DNA from: Psychrobacter luti
GTDB taxonomy: Bacteria; Pseudomonadota; Gammaproteobacteria; Pseudomonadales; Moraxellaceae
Direction: 5' to 3'
DNA: 64,000 nucleotides
Assembly (NCBI RefSeq): GCF_014192115.1
Contig: NZ_JACHXL010000001.1
Coordinates: 310,001 to 374,000, forward strand
Of the stretch, positions 22,203 to 32,176 are shown in pieces (the first letter of the stretch is position 1; every line of letters starts with the position of its first letter). Made by a program: the position numbers and the translations under genes. The notes beneath the pieces are model-generated. The model worked only from the letters and a program-made list of their open reading frames with translations, was not told the DNA's origin and made no database searches.

Positions 22203-23363
22203 TTACTGTGCTGAGGTATAAACAGGCTTACCTTCGCTATCTACCACCTCGTTCCATTTCGCTTTAAATAAAGCCACGGCCGTATCTGAAAAAGGTACGT
22301 AATCAAGACTCATCGCGTCATCATCGCCTTGAGCATAAGCCCAGTCAAAGAAGTTAAGGACACCTGCCACTTGTTTGGCATCTTGCGGTTGTTTATGAAC
22401 TAAGATAAAGGTCGCAGCAGCGATAGGCCATGCTTGATCGGTCTCAGAGTTGGTGATGACTTTATAAAAGCCTTCTTGCTTTGACCAATCGATGTCACCA
22501 GCGGCGGCGAATGTTTGCGCGGATGGTTGGACGACATTGCCAGCGGCATTTTTGAGAGCAACGTGTGACATGCCATTTTGCTTAGCATAGGCGTATTCAA
22601 CGTAGCCGATAGAGTTCTTCATACGCGTCACATAGCTTGAAACGCCTTCGTTACCTTTACCACCAGCACCCGTTGCCGAGGTTGGCCATTTCACGGTTTT
22701 ATCGACACCAACGCTGTCTTTCCAGTCGTTTGAAACTTTGGCTAGATAATCAGTAAAGTTAAAGGTTGTGCCCGAGCCGTCTGAACGGAACACCGTGGTA
22801 ATGGCCGCATCAGGAAGGGTTAAATCAGGGTTCATGGCTGCGATGGCAGGGTCATTCCATTTGCTGATTTTGCCAAGATAGATGTCAGCTAGCATTTTTC
22901 CATCTAGCTTTAATTGACCAGGCGCAACGCCATCGATGTTGACGATAGGTACTACGCCACCGATAACGGTTGGGAATTGAATCAGACCGGCTTCGTTTAA
23001 TTCAGCTGGCGTCATTGGCGCATCAGACGCACCGAAATCAACGGTTTTTGCGACGATTTGTTTGATACCACCCGATGAACCAATCGACTGATAGTTCACT
23101 TGACCGCCTGTTGCTTTATTATAGGCATCTGACCATTTAGCATAGATAGGCTGCGGGAAAGAGGCGCCAGCGCCGGTGATGTTCATCGATATATTGTCTG
23201 TTGATTGGGCGTCTGTTGGTTGAACCTTTGCGGTGTCGGTAGACGCGGTGGTTGATTGCGCCGAAGTAGCTGGCTCATTGCTTTCATTACTATTGGGGGT
23301 TTGATTACAAGCAGCTAAGGTAAAGGTACTCGCGACTGCTAAAGCCATTAATGAATAACGCAT
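22203..23363 (-). CDS. pstS: Phosphate-binding protein PstS (lipoprotein)
   Basis: Binds phosphate outside the inner membrane and delivers it to PstCAB. 386 residues. The signal peptide ends in LAAC, so it is predicted to be lipid-anchored. A 40-residue Ser/Thr/Gln linker leads to the PBP-like domain that begins ITGAGASFPQPIYAKW. Phosphate-contact blocks are present: GASFP, YQSIGSSGGIKQI, FGASDAPMT and VFRSDGSGTTFNFTDYL. First gene of pstSCAB-phoU. A likely Pho box lies 159 bp upstream. Confidence 0.97.
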   Translation of the reverse strand: MRYSLMALAVASTFTLAACNQTPNSNESNEPATSAQSTTASTDTAKVQPTDAQSTDNISMNITGAGASFPQPIYAKWSDAYNKATGGQVNYQSIGSSGGIKQIVAKTVDFGASDAPMTPAELNEAGLIQFPTVIGGVVPIVNIDGVAPGQLKLDGKMLADIYLGKISKWNDPAIAAMNPDLTLPDAAITTVFRSDGSGTTFNFTDYLAKVSNDWKDSVGVDKTVKWPTSATGAGGKGNEGVSSYVTRMKNSIGYVEYAYAKQNGMSHVALKNAAGNVVQPSAQTFAAAGDIDWSKQEGFYKVITNSETDQAWPIAAATFILVHKQPQDAKQVAGVLNFFDWAYAQGDDDAMSLDYVPFSDTAVALFKAKWNEVVDSEGKPVYTSAQ

Positions 23364-23521
23364 TATTTCTCCTAAAAAGTAATCAGATTTAAGTATGGGG
23401 CGTTTATGAATAACAATGTCGATGCCCAGGTTTTTAGTAATGTATTGCTAACGATGTTTGGTTAGCAACGTTTTGCTGCAAAGACGCTCGGTGGTCAATG
23501 AGCATATTGTGCCGAGCAAAT

Positions 23522-23539
23522 ATGACAGTTTGATGAAAT
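23522..23539 (-). promoter_or_regulatory. Putative Pho box upstream of pstS
   Basis: On the minus strand ATTTCAT-CAAA-CTGTCAT matches the PhoB site form CTGTCAT-N4-CTGTCAT in 12 of 14 repeat positions. Confidence 0.6.
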
Positions 23540-23670
23540 AAGACATTTTTATGAAAAAAGTCGGTCAATTAAAGAAACAGCCTAATAGAGCGGTCATTTA
23601 AGCGGATTGCAGCTGATATCTAGAGCAAAATTCGTTATGATGAGCCGTTGGTTTTTCTAGGGCGTAAGTG

Positions 23671-23795
23671 TTTAAGGCTAAGTCTTTAAAGTGACATTTT
23701 TAAAGTGCAATGATTAAAAAGCCCTGTTTGAAGTGGAATATTTAAAGTACAGTGCTTGAGGCGCAGTGTTAAGGCATAGCATTTAAAGTATCAAA
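23671..23795. repeat. Degenerate 14-bp tandem repeat in the pstS-phoB spacer
   Basis: Nine units begin every 14 bp from 23671 to 23769, then at 23782. The best are TTTAAAGTGACATT, TTTAAAGTGCAATG and TTTAAAGTACAGTG. The array ends 6 bp before the phoB Pho box. The rest of this 541-bp divergent spacer holds the pstS Pho box and AT-rich promoter sequence. Confidence 0.8.
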
Positions 23796-23800
23796 TCACC

Positions 23801-23818
23801 GTGTCATCAAACTGTCAT
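23801..23818 (+). promoter_or_regulatory. Pho box upstream of phoB
   Basis: GTGTCAT-CAAA-CTGTCAT, two 7-bp PhoB half-sites with the correct 4-bp gap and 13 of 14 positions matching. It lies 87 bp before the phoB start and implies autoregulation. Confidence 0.8.
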
Positions 23819-23904
23819 AATTAAGCCGTTTAATGGGCAGGCGTTGATAAGTGCTTAGTATTTTTATTTTCTAATTTTTTGTCTTTCAATAATGAGGCGA
23901 TAGT

Positions 23905-24603
23905 ATGCGCAATGAGCAGATTTTGATTGTCGAAGATGAACCTGCAATTCGTGAGATGGTGGTAATGACGCTAGAGATGGCGGGCTTTGAGAGTTTACAA
24001 GCGGCTGACGTCGCAGAGGCGCATCAGCAAGTGGTTGACCACAGACCTGCTTTAATTTTGCTAGATTGGATGTTACCAGGTGATAAAAGCGGTATTGATT
24101 TTTGCCGCATGCTCAAAAGCGATGAGATGCTGGCTGAGATACCGGTCATTATGCTGACGGCCAAGAGTGAAGAGGACAGTAAGGTTCATGGGCTTGATGC
24201 GGGCGCTGATGACTATATGACCAAACCCTTTTCAACGCGTGAATTAATCTCCAGAATCAAAGCCGTGTTGCGTCGTAGTCGTGCACTCAGTAGCGATAAG
24301 CCAATTGAAATAGGCAAGCTTAGTCTCGATCCTAAAAGCCAACGCATCACTGCTGATAATCAAGTCATTGATATTGGTCCGACAGAATATCGATTGTTGG
24401 CGTTTTTTATGAGTCATCCAGAACGTGCTTATACGCGTACCCAGCTGCTAGATCAGGTCTGGGGCGGTAATGTCTATATCGAAGATCGCACGATTGATGT
24501 GCATATCCGGCGTTTACGCAAATTACTACAGCCTTATGATTGCAGTGCCTTGATTCAAACAGTTCGCGGTACAGGCTATCGTTTTTCTAGTCTGGTCGAA
24601 TAA
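23905..24603 (+). CDS. phoB: Phosphate regulon response regulator PhoB
   Basis: Transcription factor of 232 residues. The receiver domain has the acidic pair Glu10/Asp11, phosphoacceptor Asp54 (LILLDWMLPG), a switch Thr (VIMLTAKSE) and Lys in MTKPF. A winged-helix OmpR-type domain follows, with the recognition region RTIDVHIRRLRKLL and the terminal TVRGTGYRF hairpin. When phosphorylated it activates Pho-box promoters, here its own, pstS and probably the phoX-like gene at 56898. phoR follows 168 bp downstream. Confidence 0.97.
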   Translation: MRNEQILIVEDEPAIREMVVMTLEMAGFESLQAADVAEAHQQVVDHRPALILLDWMLPGDKSGIDFCRMLKSDEMLAEIPVIMLTAKSEEDSKVHGLDAGADDYMTKPFSTRELISRIKAVLRRSRALSSDKPIEIGKLSLDPKSQRITADNQVIDIGPTEYRLLAFFMSHPERAYTRTQLLDQVWGGNVYIEDRTIDVHIRRLRKLLQPYDCSALIQTVRGTGYRFSSLVE

Positions 24604-24653
24604 TGCTATCGATTTTGGAAAATAGCCCATTATTCACAATGCAGCGAAACAGC

Positions 24654-24749
24654 GCTAAGAACAATCAGTGCTAAGAATCATAAATATTTACAACTATAAG
24701 AACTAAGAACCATAAGAGCTAAGAGTGATAATTGCTAAGCATTATACTG
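24654..24749. repeat. Degenerate 16-bp tandem repeat between phoB and phoR
   Basis: Six units start every 16 bp (24654, 24670, 24686, 24702, 24718, 24734), five of them with CTAAG or a close variant at the same place, for example GCTAAGAACAATCAGT and GCTAAGAATCATAAAT. They fill most of the 168-bp spacer. Confidence 0.8.
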
Positions 24750-24771
24750 GTAATAAAGAAGAGAGAAAGAC

Positions 24772-25842
24772 ATGATAACGCCTAAGGACATTGAGCAACA
24801 AGACATCGAGCAATACTCCACCGATCAGCTTAAAAAAATCAGAAGTGCCTTACGCGCACTGCGAGATGCAGTTGTCTTGCTAAATGACGATGATGGTTTG
24901 GAGTGGTGGAATCAGGCCGCCGAAGATTTATTATTGTTGCAGTCAGCGGATCATGGCAAAAATGTTTTTGACTTTATTAACGTCCCTGAATTTCGCCAGT
25001 ACTATGAGAACAAGGTTACACCCAATGAAGGTGTGCATATGAAATCATGGCAAGATCCTAACCGTTACCTCAAATGTGAGCTCACGCCTTTTGGCGATGA
25101 GAAGCTGCTGATTATTTATGATGTGACCCGCTTACAACACTTAGAGCAAATGCGCCGCGACTTTGTGGCAAATGTCTCTCATGAGTTACGAACCCCGTTG
25201 ACCGTATTAATGGGCTATCTGGAGAATTTCTCAGATCAGGAAGATATGCCGCGGCAATGGCGACGTGGGTTTGAATTAATGACGCAGCAGACCGCGCGCA
25301 TGAATAGAGTGGTTAATGACTTGCTGCTGCTGTCTCGGATTGAAATTGAAGAGACGCATGAGCTGCACTATATTGATATGACCAAGCTGCTCACGCATGT
25401 CTATGATGACGCACAGGCTTACAACCAAGGATATGGCCATACGCTGCATTTACAGATAGATACCTATGATGGTCTCTACGGCTCGGAGATGTATTTAAAC
25501 AGTGCGTTATCCAATTTGGTGATTAATGCTATTAAATATACGCCAAAAGCAGGTAATATTGTCATTAGTTGGGCAAAAACTGCAGAAGGTTGTCGGTTTG
25601 CCGTCACCGATGATGGTATTGGAATTGCGCCGGAGCATGTTGCACGATTGACCGAACGTTTTTATCGGGTAGATAGCGGGCGCAGTCGTGCAACAGGTGG
25701 CACAGGGCTAGGGCTGGCAATTGTAAAGCATGTGTTATATCAATATGATACGACCTTACAAATTGAATCGTCAGAAGGCAAAGGCTCGACATTTAGTGCC
25801 GTTTTCCCAGCCACTCATATTCGATCTGCTCCTATAGGCTAA
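24772..25842 (+). CDS. phoR: Phosphate regulon sensor kinase PhoR, without transmembrane segments
   Basis: 356-residue histidine kinase. Residues ~20-120 form a PAS-like domain (VVLLNDDDGLEWWNQAAEDL). The dimerisation helix has His137 in VANVSHELRTPLTVL. The ATPase domain shows the N box (NLVINAIKYTP), DDGIGIAPEH and GGTGLGLAIVKH. The match to PhoR is good from the PAS domain onward and the gene follows phoB. Unlike E. coli PhoR, there is no hydrophobic N-terminus, and an in-frame stop at 24754 rules out a longer start in this frame. The kinase may be soluble, or reach the membrane through PhoU and PstB contacts. Confidence 0.92.
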   Translation: MITPKDIEQQDIEQYSTDQLKKIRSALRALRDAVVLLNDDDGLEWWNQAAEDLLLLQSADHGKNVFDFINVPEFRQYYENKVTPNEGVHMKSWQDPNRYLKCELTPFGDEKLLIIYDVTRLQHLEQMRRDFVANVSHELRTPLTVLMGYLENFSDQEDMPRQWRRGFELMTQQTARMNRVVNDLLLLSRIEIEETHELHYIDMTKLLTHVYDDAQAYNQGYGHTLHLQIDTYDGLYGSEMYLNSALSNLVINAIKYTPKAGNIVISWAKTAEGCRFAVTDDGIGIAPEHVARLTERFYRVDSGRSRATGGTGLGLAIVKHVLYQYDTTLQIESSEGKGSTFSAVFPATHIRSAPIG

Positions 25843-25886: not shown

Positions 25887-26564
25887 TCAGTTATTAGTTT
25901 CTAAATTGGCTAAAAACGCCGCAAAACCTTTTGCTGTTCGAGCTTGCAAACGGCTGCTAGTAATAACCCGAACACGATTGCTCCAAGTGATGGCATAGCC
26001 TTTACTCTCAAACCTTTTTACCAAATCAGCATCTTCGTGACACTCTAATGGCGCAAAACCATCAACTGCAAGATAAGCCTCAGCGCTAAAACTTAAATTT
26101 GCCCCATGAATATGGTGATGTCCCATCCTATCTTGATAATGAGCCATATAATCCTCGCGCGTCTGCAGCGTCAAATGCGCCCAACTATCAATGCTCACGA
26201 CGCCGCATATCATATCAGTAGGTTGGTCTTTGACATGGGCGATTTGCTGTATCAGCCAATCTGGGGTAACGACTGAATCAGCGTCTGTACAGGCAAGCCA
26301 TGTTGCGCCAGAGGCGATAGCATGCCGAATGCCTAAATCCCGTACTTGTCCCACACATTGATAGTCACAGCATAGATAATCCACGTCAACGCTCTCTACC
26401 AATTCAAGCGTATCATCGCGACAGCTATCAAGCACGACAAGTACAGACGCTGTAATAGTGGAAGGCAGCTGCTCAATGGCTGCTTGTACTGATGCTAAGC
26501 ACTTAGTAATAGTCATTGCTTCATTATGAGCAGGAATGACAATGCCAATTTTTATATCATCCAT
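25887..26564 (-). CDS. Family 2 glycosyltransferase
   Basis: 225 residues with a GT-A fold. It opens IGIVIPAHNEAMTITKCL, has a nucleotide-sugar binding block with the acidic DxD-like motif CTDADSVVTPDWL near residue 90, and ends with an acceptor-side block (FAPLECHEDADLVKRFES) that is common in GT2 enzymes. No membrane segment, so it acts in the cytoplasm or at the inner face of the membrane. Last gene of the otsBA-linked operon, 34 bp after the methyltransferase. Donor and acceptor are unknown. Confidence 0.88.
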   Translation of the reverse strand: MDDIKIGIVIPAHNEAMTITKCLASVQAAIEQLPSTITASVLVVLDSCRDDTLELVESVDVDYLCCDYQCVGQVRDLGIRHAIASGATWLACTDADSVVTPDWLIQQIAHVKDQPTDMICGVVSIDSWAHLTLQTREDYMAHYQDRMGHHHIHGANLSFSAEAYLAVDGFAPLECHEDADLVKRFESKGYAITWSNRVRVITSSRLQARTAKGFAAFLANLETNN

Positions 26565-26598
26565 ATATCTGCCTTGTTTTGCTGATTGCCATATCCTC

Positions 26599-27366
26599 TT
26601 ATACCAAGTTTTCTTGCATAGCGACTGATTTGGGCGAGTACTGCCAAACGTCTAATAAAAAATCGCTATCGATAATTTCACTTTGATGAGTAAAGGCTGA
26701 ATTTTTAGTATCGACTTTCTGTCCCTGCTTAGGTTCTAGCTCATTACTTACTTTGTCAAAAGCTTGGTTGAGACGCTGATGTACCGTTTCACCGGTCATC
26801 GTAAAGCCATCAATGGCATAGCGCCAATGACAGCATAATAAGGTGCCACCCACAGCAAGATTTTGTTTAATCCAAGTGATAACCGTATTAATATCATTAG
26901 GTGATAAATAATATAAAATTTCACTAATAACGATTAAATCAAAAGTTGGTTTAGTAGTCGGTAATGCATCAGGAATTACCCCTTGTATCACGCTGACATG
27001 AGAGGACTCTGTCAAGCGTTGTTTGGCAAGCTGCACAGCCTGCGTATTACCATCAATGCTTATCAAAGCCTGACAACGAGACGAAAGTAACGCACTAAAT
27101 ACGCCATTACCGCAGCCTAATTCAACGGCATTGTTATATTGTGTTTTTGGTAATACCGCTAGACACATATCGCGTTTACGCTTTTCGTACCAGCGGGTCT
27201 GATACTGCCATGGGTCGCTGTTATCATTGTATAAAGTATCAAAATAGCTTTCTGCATAGTTGGTATCTTGCGTATCAATATGGGAGCGGTCAGCCGTCTC
27301 ATTTTTACAAACCATTGGACGGTTTGTAAAATCTATTTCCAGCGTAACTTTAGGGTGTTGGCTCAT
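26599..27366 (-). CDS. SAM-dependent methyltransferase (NodS-like)
   Basis: 255 residues from the start at 27366, chosen because GGGAGG lies 9 nt upstream; a longer frame would overlap the previous gene by over 100 bp. The class I fold shows motif I in AVELGCGNGVFSALL, acidic residues in LISIDGNTQAV, and a motif IV-like LIVISEILYYLSP. The N-terminal DPWQYQTRWYEKRKRD block resembles the NodS-type group, which N-methylates amino sugars. Given the PIG-L deacetylase directly upstream (17-bp overlap), methylation of a freed amine is an attractive inference, not shown. Confidence 0.85.
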   Translation of the reverse strand: MSQHPKVTLEIDFTNRPMVCKNETADRSHIDTQDTNYAESYFDTLYNDNSDPWQYQTRWYEKRKRDMCLAVLPKTQYNNAVELGCGNGVFSALLSSRCQALISIDGNTQAVQLAKQRLTESSHVSVIQGVIPDALPTTKPTFDLIVISEILYYLSPNDINTVITWIKQNLAVGGTLLCCHWRYAIDGFTMTGETVHQRLNQAFDKVSNELEPKQGQKVDTKNSAFTHQSEIIDSDFLLDVWQYSPKSVAMQENLV

Positions 27367-28171
27367 ATAAATAAACCTCCCATGGTTGGCTAATTCTGGC
27401 AATAGTTTGAGCTGATAAAATGGGCGGATTGCCCGTACTTTCATCAACGGTAATCTGACTGGTAAAGCAAGCAATGGCTTGGGATTTACGCTGTAACTGC
27501 TCAGGGCTTAAGTCTACTCTGTGAGCACAGTGCCAAGGAATACGGATATCAGCAGGCTTTGCCCAATGCCATGCCCAAATTAAAACTTGATAACAGGCTA
27601 AATGCTGCTGCTTAGCAAATGCAGCGACCACTTGCCCCGTTGCCTCATGGTCAGGATGCCCATCATGTACAAACGGCGTTACCAAAATATCATCAGGTTG
27701 GATAATTGCTGCTAATTTTTGGTGAAACTGTGCCTGCTCAGCAAACACGTCGCCATCGGTTAAATGCATAGAAATAACCTTCACTTGATGAGATATACTC
27801 AATGCCTCTAACGCTGCAACACTTTCTTCCGGACGGATAATATCAAGCGCTTTTGGAGGATAAATCTGCGAGTCAGGATGGCTTTGCGTGCCATTGGTCA
27901 CATGAACCAGTAAGATAGGATTGCCGTTAGCTGCTAGCTGTTGTAGCAGTCCGCCGCAGCCCAATACTTCATCGTCAGGATGCGGCGCAAAAATACAAAC
28001 CTGCTGCTGCGCCGGAAAGCTTGTCGCTACATTTAAGCGTGGCATGTTTTGCAGCCCTGACCAATTTTGCCAAGCGTCGTAACTGGTACCATCACCTTCA
28101 ATAATACGATCACCAACAATCGGATGGTCTTTTCTTATGGATTCATCCTTACTAGGAATTACAGTTGCCAT
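27350..28171 (-). CDS. PIG-L/LmbE-family deacetylase
   Basis: 273 residues. It has the zinc motif FAPHPDDEVLGCGG near residue 58 and the second metal block HDGHPDHEATG, both complete. Family members remove acetyl groups from N-acetylglucosamine-linked small molecules or lipids (PIG-L, MshB, BshB, LmbE). No signal peptide is evident. It overlaps the upstream acyl-CoA dehydrogenase-like gene by 13 bp and the downstream methyltransferase by 17 bp, so the three are translationally linked. The substrate is unknown. Confidence 0.9.
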   Translation of the reverse strand: MATVIPSKDESIRKDHPIVGDRIIEGDGTSYDAWQNWSGLQNMPRLNVATSFPAQQQVCIFAPHPDDEVLGCGGLLQQLAANGNPILLVHVTNGTQSHPDSQIYPPKALDIIRPEESVAALEALSISHQVKVISMHLTDGDVFAEQAQFHQKLAAIIQPDDILVTPFVHDGHPDHEATGQVVAAFAKQQHLACYQVLIWAWHWAKPADIRIPWHCAHRVDLSPEQLQRKSQAIACFTSQITVDESTGNPPILSAQTIARISQPWEVYLYEPTP

Positions 28172-29307
28172 ATATTTCCCTGCCTATTTATAAAGTCACT
28201 GGTCTTCTTGCTAGTATGTTTGCTAGCGGCTTCACGGGCTAACATACTAGACAGCTCACCGATTTTATGTAAATCAAAAGCGCCATGACTTTGGCGAATA
28301 AATACGGTCAAATCCGCTGATAATCTGGCGAAATGGGCGTTATTGCAAAAGGGCGCGGCGCCCAATGCTTGCCCGACGACCTCTATAACCTCGCGAGCTA
28401 ATTGTTCAACGTTTGACCTTAATTGGCGGATAGCAAGCTCATGACTTTGTGTTGGCTCAGTATCTATTAGGTCAGCAATATGATGAAAATATTGCTGAGT
28501 GACAGCCAGTGCCGTGCTAATTTGTCCCAAATACATCGCTTTATAATCGTTTGATTTTTGCTGATAAGCGGTGATTAAATAACTGGCTAGACAAGCTGCC
28601 GCGCCATACCAACAAGCAGCAACGCCTGCCGCGCCATGCCAAAATCCCACACGTTCTAGATACGCATTTGGGGCGCCAACGTTACTGGCTGTTACCTGAT
28701 CGAAATATATGGTTGCCGTATCAGTAGCCTGCATGCCGACTGCTTGCCATGCACTATTATCAATCCTAATCCCATCTTGCTGCATATCTACGGTGAGCAA
28801 TTGCGCCTGACCATGCTCATTGCGATAGGTCATTAGGCCATAATCAACGATATTTGCTCCTGAACACCATGCTTTTGTACCGCTGATTTTGCCATTTTGA
28901 TAGGTTAAATGACGACCCTCTGCTGCCCAGACTGCCCATAATCCTGCTGCTGTTTCATCATATTCCAGTTCATGTAAAATACTTAAAGCGTCTAAATGCG
29001 ATTCAAACCATTTGGCAATCGTTAAATCTATGCTGGCCACATACGCTAAGATTTGCCAACGAATCAAAGTGTTTGAGTTAGTTTGAGTATTATCTCCTTT
29101 GGTACTTTTCATACCGCTGGCAGGATGAGGGATTTTATCGCTATAGCTGACTAATATTTTTAAGATCTCATGGCGCATCTTATCGGTTATACAGAAAATA
29201 TTTGTGCTAACCACACTGCCGTTGGTTGAATTAATAGTAAATATGATATTTTCTATGACAGATTTTATGTCTGACAATAAAGGATTTTCTGCCTCGAACG
29301 CGAGCAT
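28159..29307 (-). CDS. Acyl-CoA dehydrogenase-like flavoprotein
   Basis: 382 residues. The middle domain has the typical blocks LWAVWAAEGRHLTYQNGKISG, TKAWCSGANIVDYGLMTYR and the beta-domain ending DQVTASNVGAPNAYL. A helical C-terminal domain follows, with REVIEVVGQALGAAPFC. The N-terminal helix domain is short and weakly conserved, and I cannot place the catalytic glutamate of classical fatty acyl-CoA dehydrogenases. It could be an oxidase, an N-hydroxylase-like member or a desaturating enzyme on a carrier-bound substrate. The start has GGAGA upstream and lies 19 bp after otsA. Confidence 0.8.
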   Translation of the reverse strand: MLAFEAENPLLSDIKSVIENIIFTINSTNGSVVSTNIFCITDKMRHEILKILVSYSDKIPHPASGMKSTKGDNTQTNSNTLIRWQILAYVASIDLTIAKWFESHLDALSILHELEYDETAAGLWAVWAAEGRHLTYQNGKISGTKAWCSGANIVDYGLMTYRNEHGQAQLLTVDMQQDGIRIDNSAWQAVGMQATDTATIYFDQVTASNVGAPNAYLERVGFWHGAAGVAACWYGAAACLASYLITAYQQKSNDYKAMYLGQISTALAVTQQYFHHIADLIDTEPTQSHELAIRQLRSNVEQLAREVIEVVGQALGAAPFCNNAHFARLSADLTVFIRQSHGAFDLHKIGELSSMLAREAASKHTSKKTSDFINRQGNIWQL

Positions 29308-29326
29308 AAGGGTCTCCTAATTATTT

Positions 29327-30925
29327 TTATGAGCCAGACATTTGAACGGCTTCTGGGGAGTTGTTGTTTGTTTGATATTTTGTACTATCATATAAGTTAT
29401 TTAAATATAGGTCGTCTAAAAAACTTTGCTGCCAAGCATGTAGATTATCTTGCTGCAATCCTTGTAATAATGCCTGATAGCGAGATTTTCGCTCTCCTAG
29501 TGGTATTATTAAGGCAGCTTTTAAACCCTCTATTATGCTTTTTGGCTCGTGCGGATCGATAATGACTGCGGCTTGCATCTGCTCGGCGGCTCCTGCATAA
29601 CGTGAAAGCATCAGCACCCCAGGATTATCAGGATTTTGCGCAGCAATATATTCTTTGGCAACTAAATTCATGCCGTCTTGTAGCGAATTTACCCAGCCAA
29701 TATCACTACTGTAAAACGCCGTCATCACTGTCTCATGGCTCAATATTTCTTCGCTATAATTAATAGCTTGCCAAGAATCTGTATTAGGCGAAAATTGCTG
29801 ATTAACATTATGAACTGCTTGTTTAACCTCTTCATAAAGTCGTTGATAAGTCGGTAAATCTAAACGGCTAGGACAGGCGATTTGTAATAATTGCAGCTGA
29901 TTTTGGTAGGCTGGATATTGCTGTAAAAAGTTGCGATAGCCCGAAAAACGCTCTAATAAACCTTTGGAGTAATCAATCCTATCTACCGCAATAATACGCT
30001 GTGAGATAGGCTTTACCGTATCGTTATTCTGAGGGTGCTTAATAGATGATAAGGATAAAGGCGAGAATAAATGGCTAACCTGTTGTTGGATTTTTGAGAC
30101 ATTGACGCCGATAGGATAGGCATTAATTATTAAAGCATGCTGGGGTTTTAACTCTAAATGAAGTTTTAACTGTATGCTAGATGCAGTATGCGCTCTAGCA
30201 ACAGGCTGTTTGGAGTATAAAACGTTGAGTGGTAAAAGATCTAAAAGACTGTTGTTTATCAAGCTATCTTTGACACGGCTTTCTTCTAAAAGGCTATCTT
30301 TTAAGTAATGCTGAAAAACCGCAAGACAATGGGCTTTATCTTGCTGAGTTTGGGTTCCAAGCACATCATAATGTGCAAGATGCTTAATCAGCTCACAGCT
30401 TTGAGCAAGCTGTTGCCAAAATATTAATGGCGCAAACGGGATATGTAAAAAAAAGCCGATACGATTTTTTATCCCAAAAGCTCTGCAATGATAGGCCACA
30501 CTTAAAAAATGATAATCATGCACCCAAATCACATCGTCAGGCTGAATAATGCTCTTTAATTGGTTGGCAAATAGGCGGTTTACCGCTTGATAACCGGCAT
30601 AGTCCTCTGGTGCCTGGTCAATCAACGCGGGTTGCTCATGTAATAATGGCCAGAGCACGTTATTGGCAAAGCCGCAGTAAAAACGTTGATATTGTCGGGT
30701 GGTAAGGGCAGTGGTCATATAAGTGACTTCTGTCCCAGCTTGTTTACGGTTACTAAATGTATTGATTTCACTAAAATCAGAGCTATCAAGAATGTCACCA
30801 TTCCAGCCTATCCAAATGACTGAGTTGCCCGTCAAGATGTCTTGTAACGCTACTGCTAGCCCGCCTGCCATAGGATTATTATCGGGCATCTTTACTCGGT
30901 TAGATAAGACGATTAAACGGCTCAT
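29327..30925 (-). CDS. otsA: Trehalose-6-phosphate synthase
   Basis: GT20 enzyme that joins UDP-glucose and glucose-6-phosphate to trehalose-6-phosphate in the cytoplasm. 532 residues. It begins MSRLIVLSNRV and has the N-terminal glycine loop MAGGLAVALQDI, the WVHDYHFL block, the sugar-phosphate site AVDRIDYSKGLLERF and the donor site DGMNLVAKEYIAAQ. It is about 55 residues longer than E. coli OtsA; the surplus is mainly a Leu/Ser-rich insert near residues 205-280. Its ATG overlaps the otsB stop (ATGA), so the two are coupled. Confidence 0.95.
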   Translation of the reverse strand: MSRLIVLSNRVKMPDNNPMAGGLAVALQDILTGNSVIWIGWNGDILDSSDFSEINTFSNRKQAGTEVTYMTTALTTRQYQRFYCGFANNVLWPLLHEQPALIDQAPEDYAGYQAVNRLFANQLKSIIQPDDVIWVHDYHFLSVAYHCRAFGIKNRIGFFLHIPFAPLIFWQQLAQSCELIKHLAHYDVLGTQTQQDKAHCLAVFQHYLKDSLLEESRVKDSLINNSLLDLLPLNVLYSKQPVARAHTASSIQLKLHLELKPQHALIINAYPIGVNVSKIQQQVSHLFSPLSLSSIKHPQNNDTVKPISQRIIAVDRIDYSKGLLERFSGYRNFLQQYPAYQNQLQLLQIACPSRLDLPTYQRLYEEVKQAVHNVNQQFSPNTDSWQAINYSEEILSHETVMTAFYSSDIGWVNSLQDGMNLVAKEYIAAQNPDNPGVLMLSRYAGAAEQMQAAVIIDPHEPKSIIEGLKAALIIPLGERKSRYQALLQGLQQDNLHAWQQSFLDDLYLNNLYDSTKYQTNNNSPEAVQMSGS

Positions 30926-31842
30926 ATCAGTTGCCTCGTATGTTTGTCGACCGCCGGAACATTTATCGGTACATTCATATTGGCTAGGTCAGGCAGTAGA
31001 GTGCTGCGTTTTTGACAAAAATCTAAAAAGCCCTCAAGTAAAACTGTTACCTCATGAATATCATTGACATAATAATGGGCGCAAGTCAGTTGCTGGCATT
31101 CATTTCCTACCTTGATGCCCATACCTTTGGTTAAATGGCTTTTTTCTACAGATCGCTTACTATCTTGTACGGCAATAAACCCTTCTTCATCGGTTATATC
31201 ATCACCGATAAAAATAGGGCAAAGAGTATCATTGGTGTGCATTTGTTTTAATAAGATTAAAATCGCAACGCCTTTATCGGCTGCTTTGGGCGCTATCTCC
31301 CACACATACTTGCCCTGTTTTAATAGCCAATCAGGGTGGTTTTTTGACGTGGTTGACATAATGGCGTACGCCACATCAGCTAACGCAGGATTTTGCCGAT
31401 AATGCAGGGCAATAGAATAAGGTTTATCTTCTATCAACAAATCATCATAAGGCGTACAAGATTGACGAATAGCCTGCTTGATAGCGGTCAGTTCAGCGAA
31501 GTTAATCTGCGTAAGACTTGCGCTGATACCATCAAATGCCATTTCTAATCCATGCGTTGCGGCAATTGGCAGTTTTATAGGAGACAGCATTTGCCTTGCT
31601 TCAGCTAGACTGCGTCCGGTGACAATCGCGATGTTGACGCTATGACTTTGTATTTTTTCTAAAAGTGTTAGGGTGGTAGTAGGAATGAAGCTGTCTTTCG
31701 GATTCAAGGTAAAGTCTGCAAGCGTACCATCTATATCTAAAAACAGGCAATAGTCTTGCTGCGGCGATAAGTAATCGGCAAAGTGCTTGGGTGAAATGCA
31801 TATAGGTGCGCTATGCACGCTGGTGCTTCTTCCTGAAGTCAC
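30922..31842 (-). CDS. otsB: Trehalose-6-phosphate phosphatase
   Basis: HAD-family phosphatase that finishes trehalose synthesis. I choose the GTG start at 31842 (306 residues) because AAAGGA lies 6 nt upstream; an earlier GTG at 31899 has no site. The nucleophile motif is FLDIDGTLADF, followed by IVTGRSLAEARQML, ATHGLEMAFDG and the IFIGDDITDEEGF Mg site. First gene of the six-gene operon. Trehalose would serve as a compatible solute in salt or cold stress, but the downstream genes raise the chance that trehalose-6-phosphate or trehalose is further modified. Confidence 0.93.
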   Translation of the reverse strand: MTSGRSTSVHSAPICISPKHFADYLSPQQDYCLFLDIDGTLADFTLNPKDSFIPTTTLTLLEKIQSHSVNIAIVTGRSLAEARQMLSPIKLPIAATHGLEMAFDGISASLTQINFAELTAIKQAIRQSCTPYDDLLIEDKPYSIALHYRQNPALADVAYAIMSTTSKNHPDWLLKQGKYVWEIAPKAADKGVAILILLKQMHTNDTLCPIFIGDDITDEEGFIAVQDSKRSVEKSHLTKGMGIKVGNECQQLTCAHYYVNDIHEVTVLLEGFLDFCQKRSTLLPDLANMNVPINVPAVDKHTRQLI

Positions 31843-32045: not shown

Positions 32046-32176
32046 TAATAAGCAACCAAACTTGATCACGAGTGTGCCATAAACTCCGTTACACTATGAT
32101 GGACAACCTATTGAGTTTAGTATAAGTTTTTTTAACATAAGTCTTTAAATTTACAAAAAACCATTAAGGAAAGATT

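What the first reader, a model, noticed from the sequence alone, without database searches (positions are those of the whole stretch)
25887..31842. otsBA fused into one operon with a four-gene modification cassette (ACAD-like, PIG-L, methyltransferase, GT2)
Six genes in one direction overlap or nearly touch: otsB/otsA share ATGA, PIG-L overlaps its neighbours by 13 and 17 bp, and other gaps are 19-34 bp. The last four form a plausible small-molecule pathway: a flavoprotein that oxidises, a deacetylase that frees an amine, a NodS-like methyltransferase and a glycosyltransferase. I know of no described pathway with this set behind trehalose synthesis. It could make a modified trehalose or amino-sugar glycoside for cold or salt stress.
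Basis: partly seen in the sequence, partly recalled or inferred. Interest (0 to 1): 0.7.

Follow-up and report, generated by a model that had tools for sequence, protein, structure and literature searches.

The report
Trehalose genes joined to modification cassette
In a Psychrobacter-type genome the two trehalose-making genes are packed tightly in one row with four genes predicted to build and decorate an amino sugar, and because the same four genes also sit directly behind a quite different trehalose pathway in most of the Pseudomonas carriers sampled, they likely make an undescribed trehalose-linked stress compound.

Summary
In detail: otsB-otsA-ACAD-PIGL-MT-GT2 lie on one strand with overlaps or 19-34 nt gaps. 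All 34 Psychrobacter loci examined keep this order; 32 show all six genes, two end with their contig. In 100 genomes of the genus 43 have both ACAD and otsA, 55 neither; the two exceptions are cut-off loci. The four-gene cassette is scattered over Proteobacteria and one actinobacterial plasmid, and is not tied to otsBA: in 28 of 40 sampled Pseudomonas loci it follows treZ-malQ-treY-glgX on the same strand; elsewhere it sits behind, between or near otsA/otsB in Moraxellaceae, Comamonas and a Delftia-type genome. Two unrelated trehalose pathways beside one cassette point to trehalose as substrate or partner. The 'ACAD' profile matches DszC/TdsC-type flavin monooxygenases best, the MT is NodS-like, and the PIG-L keeps its motifs. 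In published A. baumannii RNA-seq, genes of the same names and order fall together with otsA/otsB. Nine literature searches found no product. Best guess: GT2 puts an N-acetylhexosamine on trehalose, which is then deacetylated, N-methylated and oxidised. Nearly as likely: co-regulation of chemically separate stress products.

The parts
30922..31842 (-). otsB, trehalose-6-phosphate phosphatase (GTG start)
   Evidence: PF02358 93.8 bits, TIGR00685 128 bits over its 68 cut-off; DIDGTL and GDDITDE motifs present
29327..30925 (-). otsA, trehalose-6-phosphate synthase
   Evidence: PF00982 308 bits; TIGR02400 445 bits, below its 565 cut-off, but SNR, GGL, VHDYH, FFLH, VDRIDYSKG, SR and DGMN motifs present (that these are the site motifs is recalled)
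28159..29307 (-). ACAD-fold flavoprotein, predicted group D flavin monooxygenase
   Evidence: profile A5 best matches TdsC, DszC, MsuC; model pLDDT 90.4; Foldseek top hits TdsC, MsuC, DszC
27350..28171 (-). PIG-L/LmbE-type de-N-acetylase
   Evidence: PF02585 88.7 bits; APHPDDE and DGHPDHE present; profile nearest diacetylchitobiose deacetylase, also BshB/MshB
26599..27366 (-). NodS-like SAM methyltransferase, predicted N-methyltransferase
   Evidence: PF05401 NodS 59 bits; profile A3 matches PDB 4isc (E 1.9e-63) and NodS 3ofj (E 3.5e-29)
25887..26564 (-). small family 2 glycosyltransferase
   Evidence: PF00535 57.5 bits; TDAD and ED motifs invariant in 20 aligned sequences; model pLDDT 92.5, matches to family 2 type transferases
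32071..32083 (-). conserved upstream element TTTATGGCACACT, likely part of the operon's control region
   Evidence: AGTTTATGGCAAACT-like site with 3 or fewer mismatches in 25 of 35 upstream regions (34 loci plus window) against 6 of 700 shuffles; the pattern was read from these same related regions, so the contrast is inflated. 4 exact sites of the relaxed pattern in the genome, 2 for the reversed control

Best explanation
The six genes form one conserved unit in which OtsA and OtsB are predicted to make trehalose and the four-gene cassette behind them likely turns part of it into an amino-sugar derivative. Proposed order, all inferred: GT2 transfers an N-acetylhexosamine (probably from UDP-GlcNAc) to trehalose; the PIG-L enzyme removes the acetyl group; the NodS-like enzyme N-methylates the freed amine; and the ACAD-fold protein, fed reduced flavin by a reductase encoded elsewhere, oxygenates the product, most likely at nitrogen as KijD3 and DnmZ do. 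The result would be an N-methylated, oxidised aminoglycosyl-trehalose serving as a stress solute. Shown: gene order, catalytic motifs, co-occurrence and repeated linkage to two kinds of trehalose pathway. Not shown: any substrate, product, reaction order or transcript in this organism.
For: Order kept in 34 of 34 Psychrobacter loci. ACAD in 45 and otsA in 44 of 100 genus genomes; 43 hold both clearly, 55 neither; the two discordant ones are G195, where the ACAD match starts at residue 75 and no otsBA match is found in the 19.9 kb around it, and G252, where the ACAD match stops at a contig end and otsA is a 22-bit remnant. Cassette directly behind treZ-malQ-treY-glgX, same strand, in 28 of 40 sampled Pseudomonas loci (NCBIfam identities on L096; its ACAD is 96% identical to named Pseudomonas proteins); behind otsBA in 3 and near convergent otsBA in 5 of 20 other Moraxellaceae; between otsA and otsB in Comamonas L087; behind otsBA in L100 (ACAD identical to Delftia). 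None of these trehalose genes in 20 control stretches from 16 of the Pseudomonas and 4 of the Moraxellaceae genomes. ACAD tree: at least 10 changes of linkage state, Ots-linked and Tre-linked loci in separate places. 50 of 52 carriers outside the tight operons encode OtsA, TreY or TreS over cut-off. A. baumannii: ACICU_02432-02435 (glycosyltransferase, methyltransferase, LmbE, ACAD-related), listed as one operon, fall 31-62-fold together with otsA/otsB, 12-50-fold (PMC5660220 Table 2).
Against: Many carriers have no trehalose gene in the stretch examined, usually about 9 kb each side and sometimes less at contig ends: 12 of 40 Pseudomonas, 12 of 20 other Moraxellaceae, 27 of 36 in the order/class/phylum samples, 4 of 7 plasmid-collection loci. 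G060 and G825 pass the cut-off for none of OtsA, TreY, TreS; their cassettes are divergent (G060 without a PIG-L hit). Without the 8 Psychrobacter non-carriers, carriers do not exceed non-carriers in having a trehalose pathway (50 of 52 against 16 of 19, p 0.12). Nothing identifies the GT2 donor or acceptor. VIA-align ranks acyl-CoA dehydrogenases level with the monooxygenases, so the ACAD activity rests on sequence profile and Foldseek order. Related genomes are not independent counts. The A. baumannii genes fall with many others, so that result fits co-regulation equally well.
Confidence: 0.45

Rival explanations
1. The cassette makes a stress metabolite that is chemically independent of trehalose, and it clusters with trehalose genes only because both belong to the same stress regulon.
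For: Other stress genes lie near some cassettes: of the 103 loci L078-L180, katE in 9 (4 of these also have otsBA), Mn-catalase in 3, ferritin-like DUF892 in 2, DUF2171 in 13; none of these in the 20 controls. In A. baumannii the genes of the same names fall with a catalase and many others as well as with otsBA. The cassette occurs in alphaproteobacteria-like genomes and a Kitasatospora plasmid without nearby trehalose genes.
Against: Co-regulation alone does not easily explain integration into the same gene row with both OtsBA and TreZ-MalQ-TreY-GlgX, the cassette nested between otsA and otsB, or the joint presence and absence in Psychrobacter.
Confidence: 0.4
2. The cassette modifies a glycolipid or cell-surface glycan, with the ACAD acting as a true acyl dehydrogenase.
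For: The fold alone does not separate dehydrogenases from monooxygenases; GT2 resembles the transferases TarS/TarP and polysaccharide synthases; a deacetylase and a NodS-like methyltransferase recall lipochito-oligosaccharide assembly (recalled).
Against: No acyltransferase or polymerase in the cassette; the sequence profile prefers DszC, TdsC and MsuC to dehydrogenases; GT2 is 225 residues, modelled as one compact domain; membrane segments were not searched for.
Confidence: 0.1
3. The neighbourhood is accidental packing with no joint function.
For: Glycosyltransferase, methyltransferase, PIG-L and ACAD families are each common on their own (general knowledge).
Against: 34 of 34 order conservation with changing flanks, overlaps of 13 and 17 nt repeated in many loci, recurrence in other families.
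Confidence: 0.02

Closest known systems
Nod factor tailoring (NodB deacetylase, NodS N-methyltransferase, NodC family 2 glycosyltransferase)
   Same: A GT2, a de-N-acetylase and a NodS-type methyltransferase in one gene row; the MT profile matches NodS 3ofj at E 3.5e-29
   Different: Deacetylase is PIG-L type; GT2 is small, not a processive chitin synthase; no NodA acyltransferase; an ACAD-fold protein is added; found beside trehalose genes (NodA/NodB/NodC facts recalled)
Bacillithiol and mycothiol assembly (GT plus BshB/MshB deacetylase)
   Same: Glycosylation followed by PIG-L deacetylation (recalled); A2 profile matches BshB and MshB structures
   Different: No cysteine ligase in the gene row, GT2 instead of GT4 (recalled), plus a methyltransferase and a flavoprotein; below the BshB equivalog cut-offs
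Group D flavin monooxygenases (DszC, TdsC, MsuC; sugar N-oxygenases KijD3, DnmZ)
   Same: ACAD fold and best profile match to TdsC/DszC/MsuC; shared CSG motif; Foldseek order; KijD3 named as an N-oxygenase of sugar biosynthesis (PMC5481743 passages)
   Different: about 12-17% identity in structure alignments; no flavin reductase in the gene row; the residues recalled as catalytic in DszC (His92, Tyr96) are not kept in the alignment
Trehalose operons otsBA and treZ-malQ-treY-glgX
   Same: Standard trehalose genes
   Different: Four extra genes follow in the same direction; no description of that extension was found in our searches

Membership tests
OtsA/OtsB trehalose synthesis | GT20 synthase and HAD-type T6P phosphatase with their motifs | tested here: met
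   OtsA scores below the TIGR02400 equivalog cut-off (445 against 565)
PIG-L/LmbE zinc deacetylase | (A)HPDDE and HxDH metal and catalytic motifs | tested here: met
PIG-L/LmbE zinc deacetylase | de-N-acetylase activity on a GlcNAc compound | not testable with these tools
   needs enzyme assay
NodS N-methyltransferase | NodS equivalog model over its cut-off | tested here: not met
   NF041650 74.6 bits against 300, although Pfam NodS passes (59.1 against 24): NodS-like, not NodS
Group D flavin monooxygenase | ACAD fold with sequence nearer to DszC/TdsC/MsuC than to acyl-CoA dehydrogenases | tested here: met
   profile E 9.5e-16 to 3.3e-13 for TdsC/DszC/MsuC; first dehydrogenase-named chain 1.3e-10; Foldseek order
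Group D flavin monooxygenase | partner NAD(P)H flavin reductase supplying reduced flavin | tested here: inconclusive
   none among the six genes; no genome-wide search made
Group D flavin monooxygenase | oxygenation activity | not testable with these tools
   needs enzyme assay
Acyl-CoA dehydrogenase | catalytic glutamate of the CoA dehydrogenases | tested here: inconclusive
   the C-terminal stretch of A1 (consensus ADLxVFIRQSHAERDL) has no obvious EGT motif, but no residue-level superposition was made; the motif is recalled
Nod factor cluster | NodA, NodB and NodC homologues together | tested here: not met
   no NodA, NodB-type or NodC model among the Pfam and NCBIfam matches of the six genes

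The most novel reading that the evidence does not exclude
Pseudomonas, Acinetobacter, Psychrobacter and other bacteria make a new class of stress solute, an N-methylated and oxidised aminosugar built on trehalose, so that 'trehalose' operons in much of these groups are really operons for decorated trehalose.
Probability: 0.35. Interest if true: 0.85.

Novelty: new variant of a known kind. Interest (0 to 1): 0.62.

Why it matters
Trehalose is usually treated as the end product of otsBA and treYZ operons. If a four-gene extension, whose ACAD is found in 77 of 119 sampled genomes of the Pseudomonas genus group and 45 of 100 of Psychrobacter, modifies it, then phenotypes of trehalose mutants in drying, salt and survival may partly belong to an unseen compound. 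The prediction is directly testable by single-gene deletions and LC-MS.

Tried and rejected
Literature: ten searches; nine aimed at the cassette, one at DszC. Searches returned nothing. None listed a paper that describes the cassette as a pathway, but only open-licence PMC papers are held, and I opened only some of those listed. Papers seen: PMC5660220 (passages, and section 8 whole), PMC6240043, PMC2848557, PMC5481743, PMC9832474, PMC6181384 (passages), PMC8084333 (term search, no hits); the rest as search listings. PMC6240043 names GT, MT, LmbE-like and ACAD genes beside blsA in A. baumannii, and PMC5660220 lists them as one operon; neither passage gives a function.

A terminator or promoter separating otsA from the cassette: promoter-like sites were near shuffle level (21 against 18.9); terminator-like sites were 11 against 6.6. 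None lies in the 19 nt otsA-ACAD gap, but promoter-like minus-strand sites lie inside otsA and ACAD, so an internal start is not excluded. No transcript data exist here.

A wider regulon from the upstream element: 4 exact sites in the genome against 2 for the control; two of the other three lie inside predicted reading frames and the third about 90 nt before a long one whose family was not tested, so no regulon is claimed.

An obligatory trehalose background: consistent (50 of 52) but weak, since 16 of 19 non-carriers outside Psychrobacter have a pathway too. The carriers and 27 non-carriers were picked by hand from listed handles. The 52 leave out G315, G457 and G894 (divergent or partial) and the tightly linked genomes, but include four with trehalose genes near or convergent (G968, G910, G824, G372).

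The Fisher table for Psychrobacter had a wrong cell (1, 54); corrected to 0, 55.

GT2 fold search: many UDP-HexNAc users (TarS, TarP, GalNAc-T, chondroitin and hyaluronan synthases) but also fucosyl- and rhamnosyltransferases; no donor claim rests on it. VIA-align does not separate dehydrogenases from monooxygenases.
Full report
What is there. The window lies in a 2.97 Mb genome whose named relatives by this locus are all Psychrobacter (34 of 34 loci). Six genes run on the minus strand: otsB 30922-31842 (GTG), otsA 29327-30925, an ACAD-fold gene 28159-29307, PIG-L 27350-28171, a methyltransferase from ATG 27366 to 26599 and a GT2 25887-26564. Pfam and NCBIfam support each name, with the ACAD only just over the middle-domain cut-off and OtsA below its equivalog cut-off.

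Conservation as a unit. In 34 of 34 Psychrobacter loci the genes present keep the order otsB-otsA-ACAD-PIGL-MT-GT2; two loci end at PIG-L with their contig. The M14 gene beside the window's otsB is directly next to the operon in only L044, L045 and L046 of the 34, and the kinase and regulator beside GT2 only in L044 and L045, so the surroundings change while the unit stays. In 100 genus genomes the ACAD is found in 45 and otsA in 44. 43 have both clearly and 55 neither. In G195 the cassette is present but the ACAD match starts at residue 75 and no otsBA match was found in the stretch; in G252 the ACAD match stops at a contig end and otsA is only a 22-bit remnant. Corrected Fisher p is 3e-26, but the genomes are related and this is not an independent-sample probability. 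The upstream region of otsB holds a shared element resembling AGTTTATGGCAAACT, in 25 of 35 regions at 3 mismatches or fewer against 6 of 700 shuffles; the pattern was taken from these same regions, so this is description, not a test.

The cassette outside Psychrobacter. The ACAD family was found in 14 of 194 genomes of the order at E 1e-3 (7 of the 14 are weak, E 1e-5 or worse), in 7 of 369 of the class and 34 of 398 of the phylum at 1e-20, in 77 of 119 genomes of genus group g55 at 1e-40 and in 41 of 149 of the family. Group g55 is called Pseudomonas here because the ACAD of its member G902 is 96% identical to named Pseudomonas proteins; L100 (G814) is called Delftia-type because its ACAD is identical to a Delftia protein; g557 is called Acinetobacter because four of its loci are 89-91% identical to the ACAD of named Acinetobacter records. 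Other group names are inference. I examined 137 neighbourhoods (34 + 40 + 20 + 36 + 7). A trehalose gene lies in the stretch in 82: 34 of 34 Psychrobacter, 28 of 40 Pseudomonas, 8 of 20 other Moraxellaceae, 9 of 36 in wider samples and 3 of 7 plasmid-collection loci. The 40 Pseudomonas loci are the 37 even ranks plus three others out of 74 full-length hits. Not every cassette is complete: all four genes were detected in 35 of 40, 20 of 20, 24 of 36 and 7 of 7 of the last four sets. TreS was not looked for in neighbourhoods.

Two different trehalose pathways. In all 28 linked Pseudomonas loci treZ, malQ, treY and glgX are on the same strand as the cassette, and glgX is followed by the ACAD (in 27 the profile-defined gap is 10-61 nt, in L127 a split ACAD match hid the gap). 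NCBIfam gives GlgX, TreY, MalQ and TreZ over cut-off on L096. In Comamonas L087 the order is otsA-ACAD-PIGL-MT-GT2-otsB. In L100 it is otsB-otsA-cassette. In L083, L084, L165, L166, L170, L171 and L172 (Acinetobacter or its family) the cassette, an MFS transporter and convergent otsBA lie together. OtsBA and TreYZ are unrelated routes that share trehalose as product (established knowledge). Twenty control stretches from the same genomes had none of these trehalose genes. On an 84-row ACAD tree the linkage label needs at least 10 changes, with Ots-linked loci in the Moraxellaceae clade and again at L100 and L105 in another part, and Tre-linked loci in one Pseudomonas clade plus L099, L090 and L101 (quick method, several long branches, Comamonas placement unsure). 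Linkage was therefore gained or lost repeatedly.

Expression. In PMC5660220 Table 2 (section read whole) the A. baumannii genes for glycosyltransferase, SAM methyltransferase, LmbE and acyl-CoA dehydrogenase-related protein are listed as one operon, and fall 31- to 62-fold in two colistin-dependent mutants, together with otsA/otsB, whose locus numbers lie far away (12- to 50-fold), a catalase and others. This fits both joint function and the rival of a shared regulon. That these four genes are the cassette is inferred from names and order; their sequences were not compared.

Reading. The simplest account of one cassette beside two trehalose pathways is that it needs trehalose. The reaction order in Best explanation is inference. 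The rival, co-regulation, is nearly as likely. Against my reading: many unlinked carriers, two carriers (G060, G825) without a recognised trehalose pathway, and no test of any substrate. Excluding Psychrobacter, carriers do not have trehalose pathways more often than non-carriers (50 of 52 against 16 of 19, p 0.12).

Noticed in passing
L096:6020-6787 (-) and 22 other Pseudomonas loci: A second PIG-L paralogue follows the cassette in 19 of 28 trehalose-linked and 0 of 12 unlinked loci of the 40 sampled, and in L095-L098; its metal motif reads APHPGDE in 23 of 23, so its active site looks altered.
   Followed up: partly
L052 and L059 (Psychrobacter immobilis A352); G279 C15 and C29: Two copies of the six-gene unit in one genome, their ACADs 72% and 68% identical to the window's; the whole-genome search counts two stop codons in the second match.
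   Followed up: no
L083, L084, L085, L167, L168, L173-L180: A DUF2171 gene stands just before the ACAD, in opposite direction, in 13 Acinetobacter-type loci; the hypothetical gene next to the same-named genes in A. baumannii (ACICU_02436) is very highly expressed.
   Followed up: partly
NZ_CP077849.1, NZ_CP064203.1, NZ_CP104448.1: A. baumannii records of 3.7-4.1 Mb in the plasmid collection look like mislabelled chromosomes.
   Followed up: no
window 22203-25842: Phosphate-binding-type protein (PBP_like_2) and a response regulator/histidine kinase pair resembling PhoB/PhoR lie next to the cassette; the kinase gene converges on GT2 with 44 nt between.
   Followed up: no
L082, L111, L112, L118: Variant cassettes have further glycosyltransferase-like genes nearby, one (L082) without a PIG-L hit; the 'GTlong' protein of L112 has no Pfam or NCBIfam match at the thresholds used.
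   Followed up: partly
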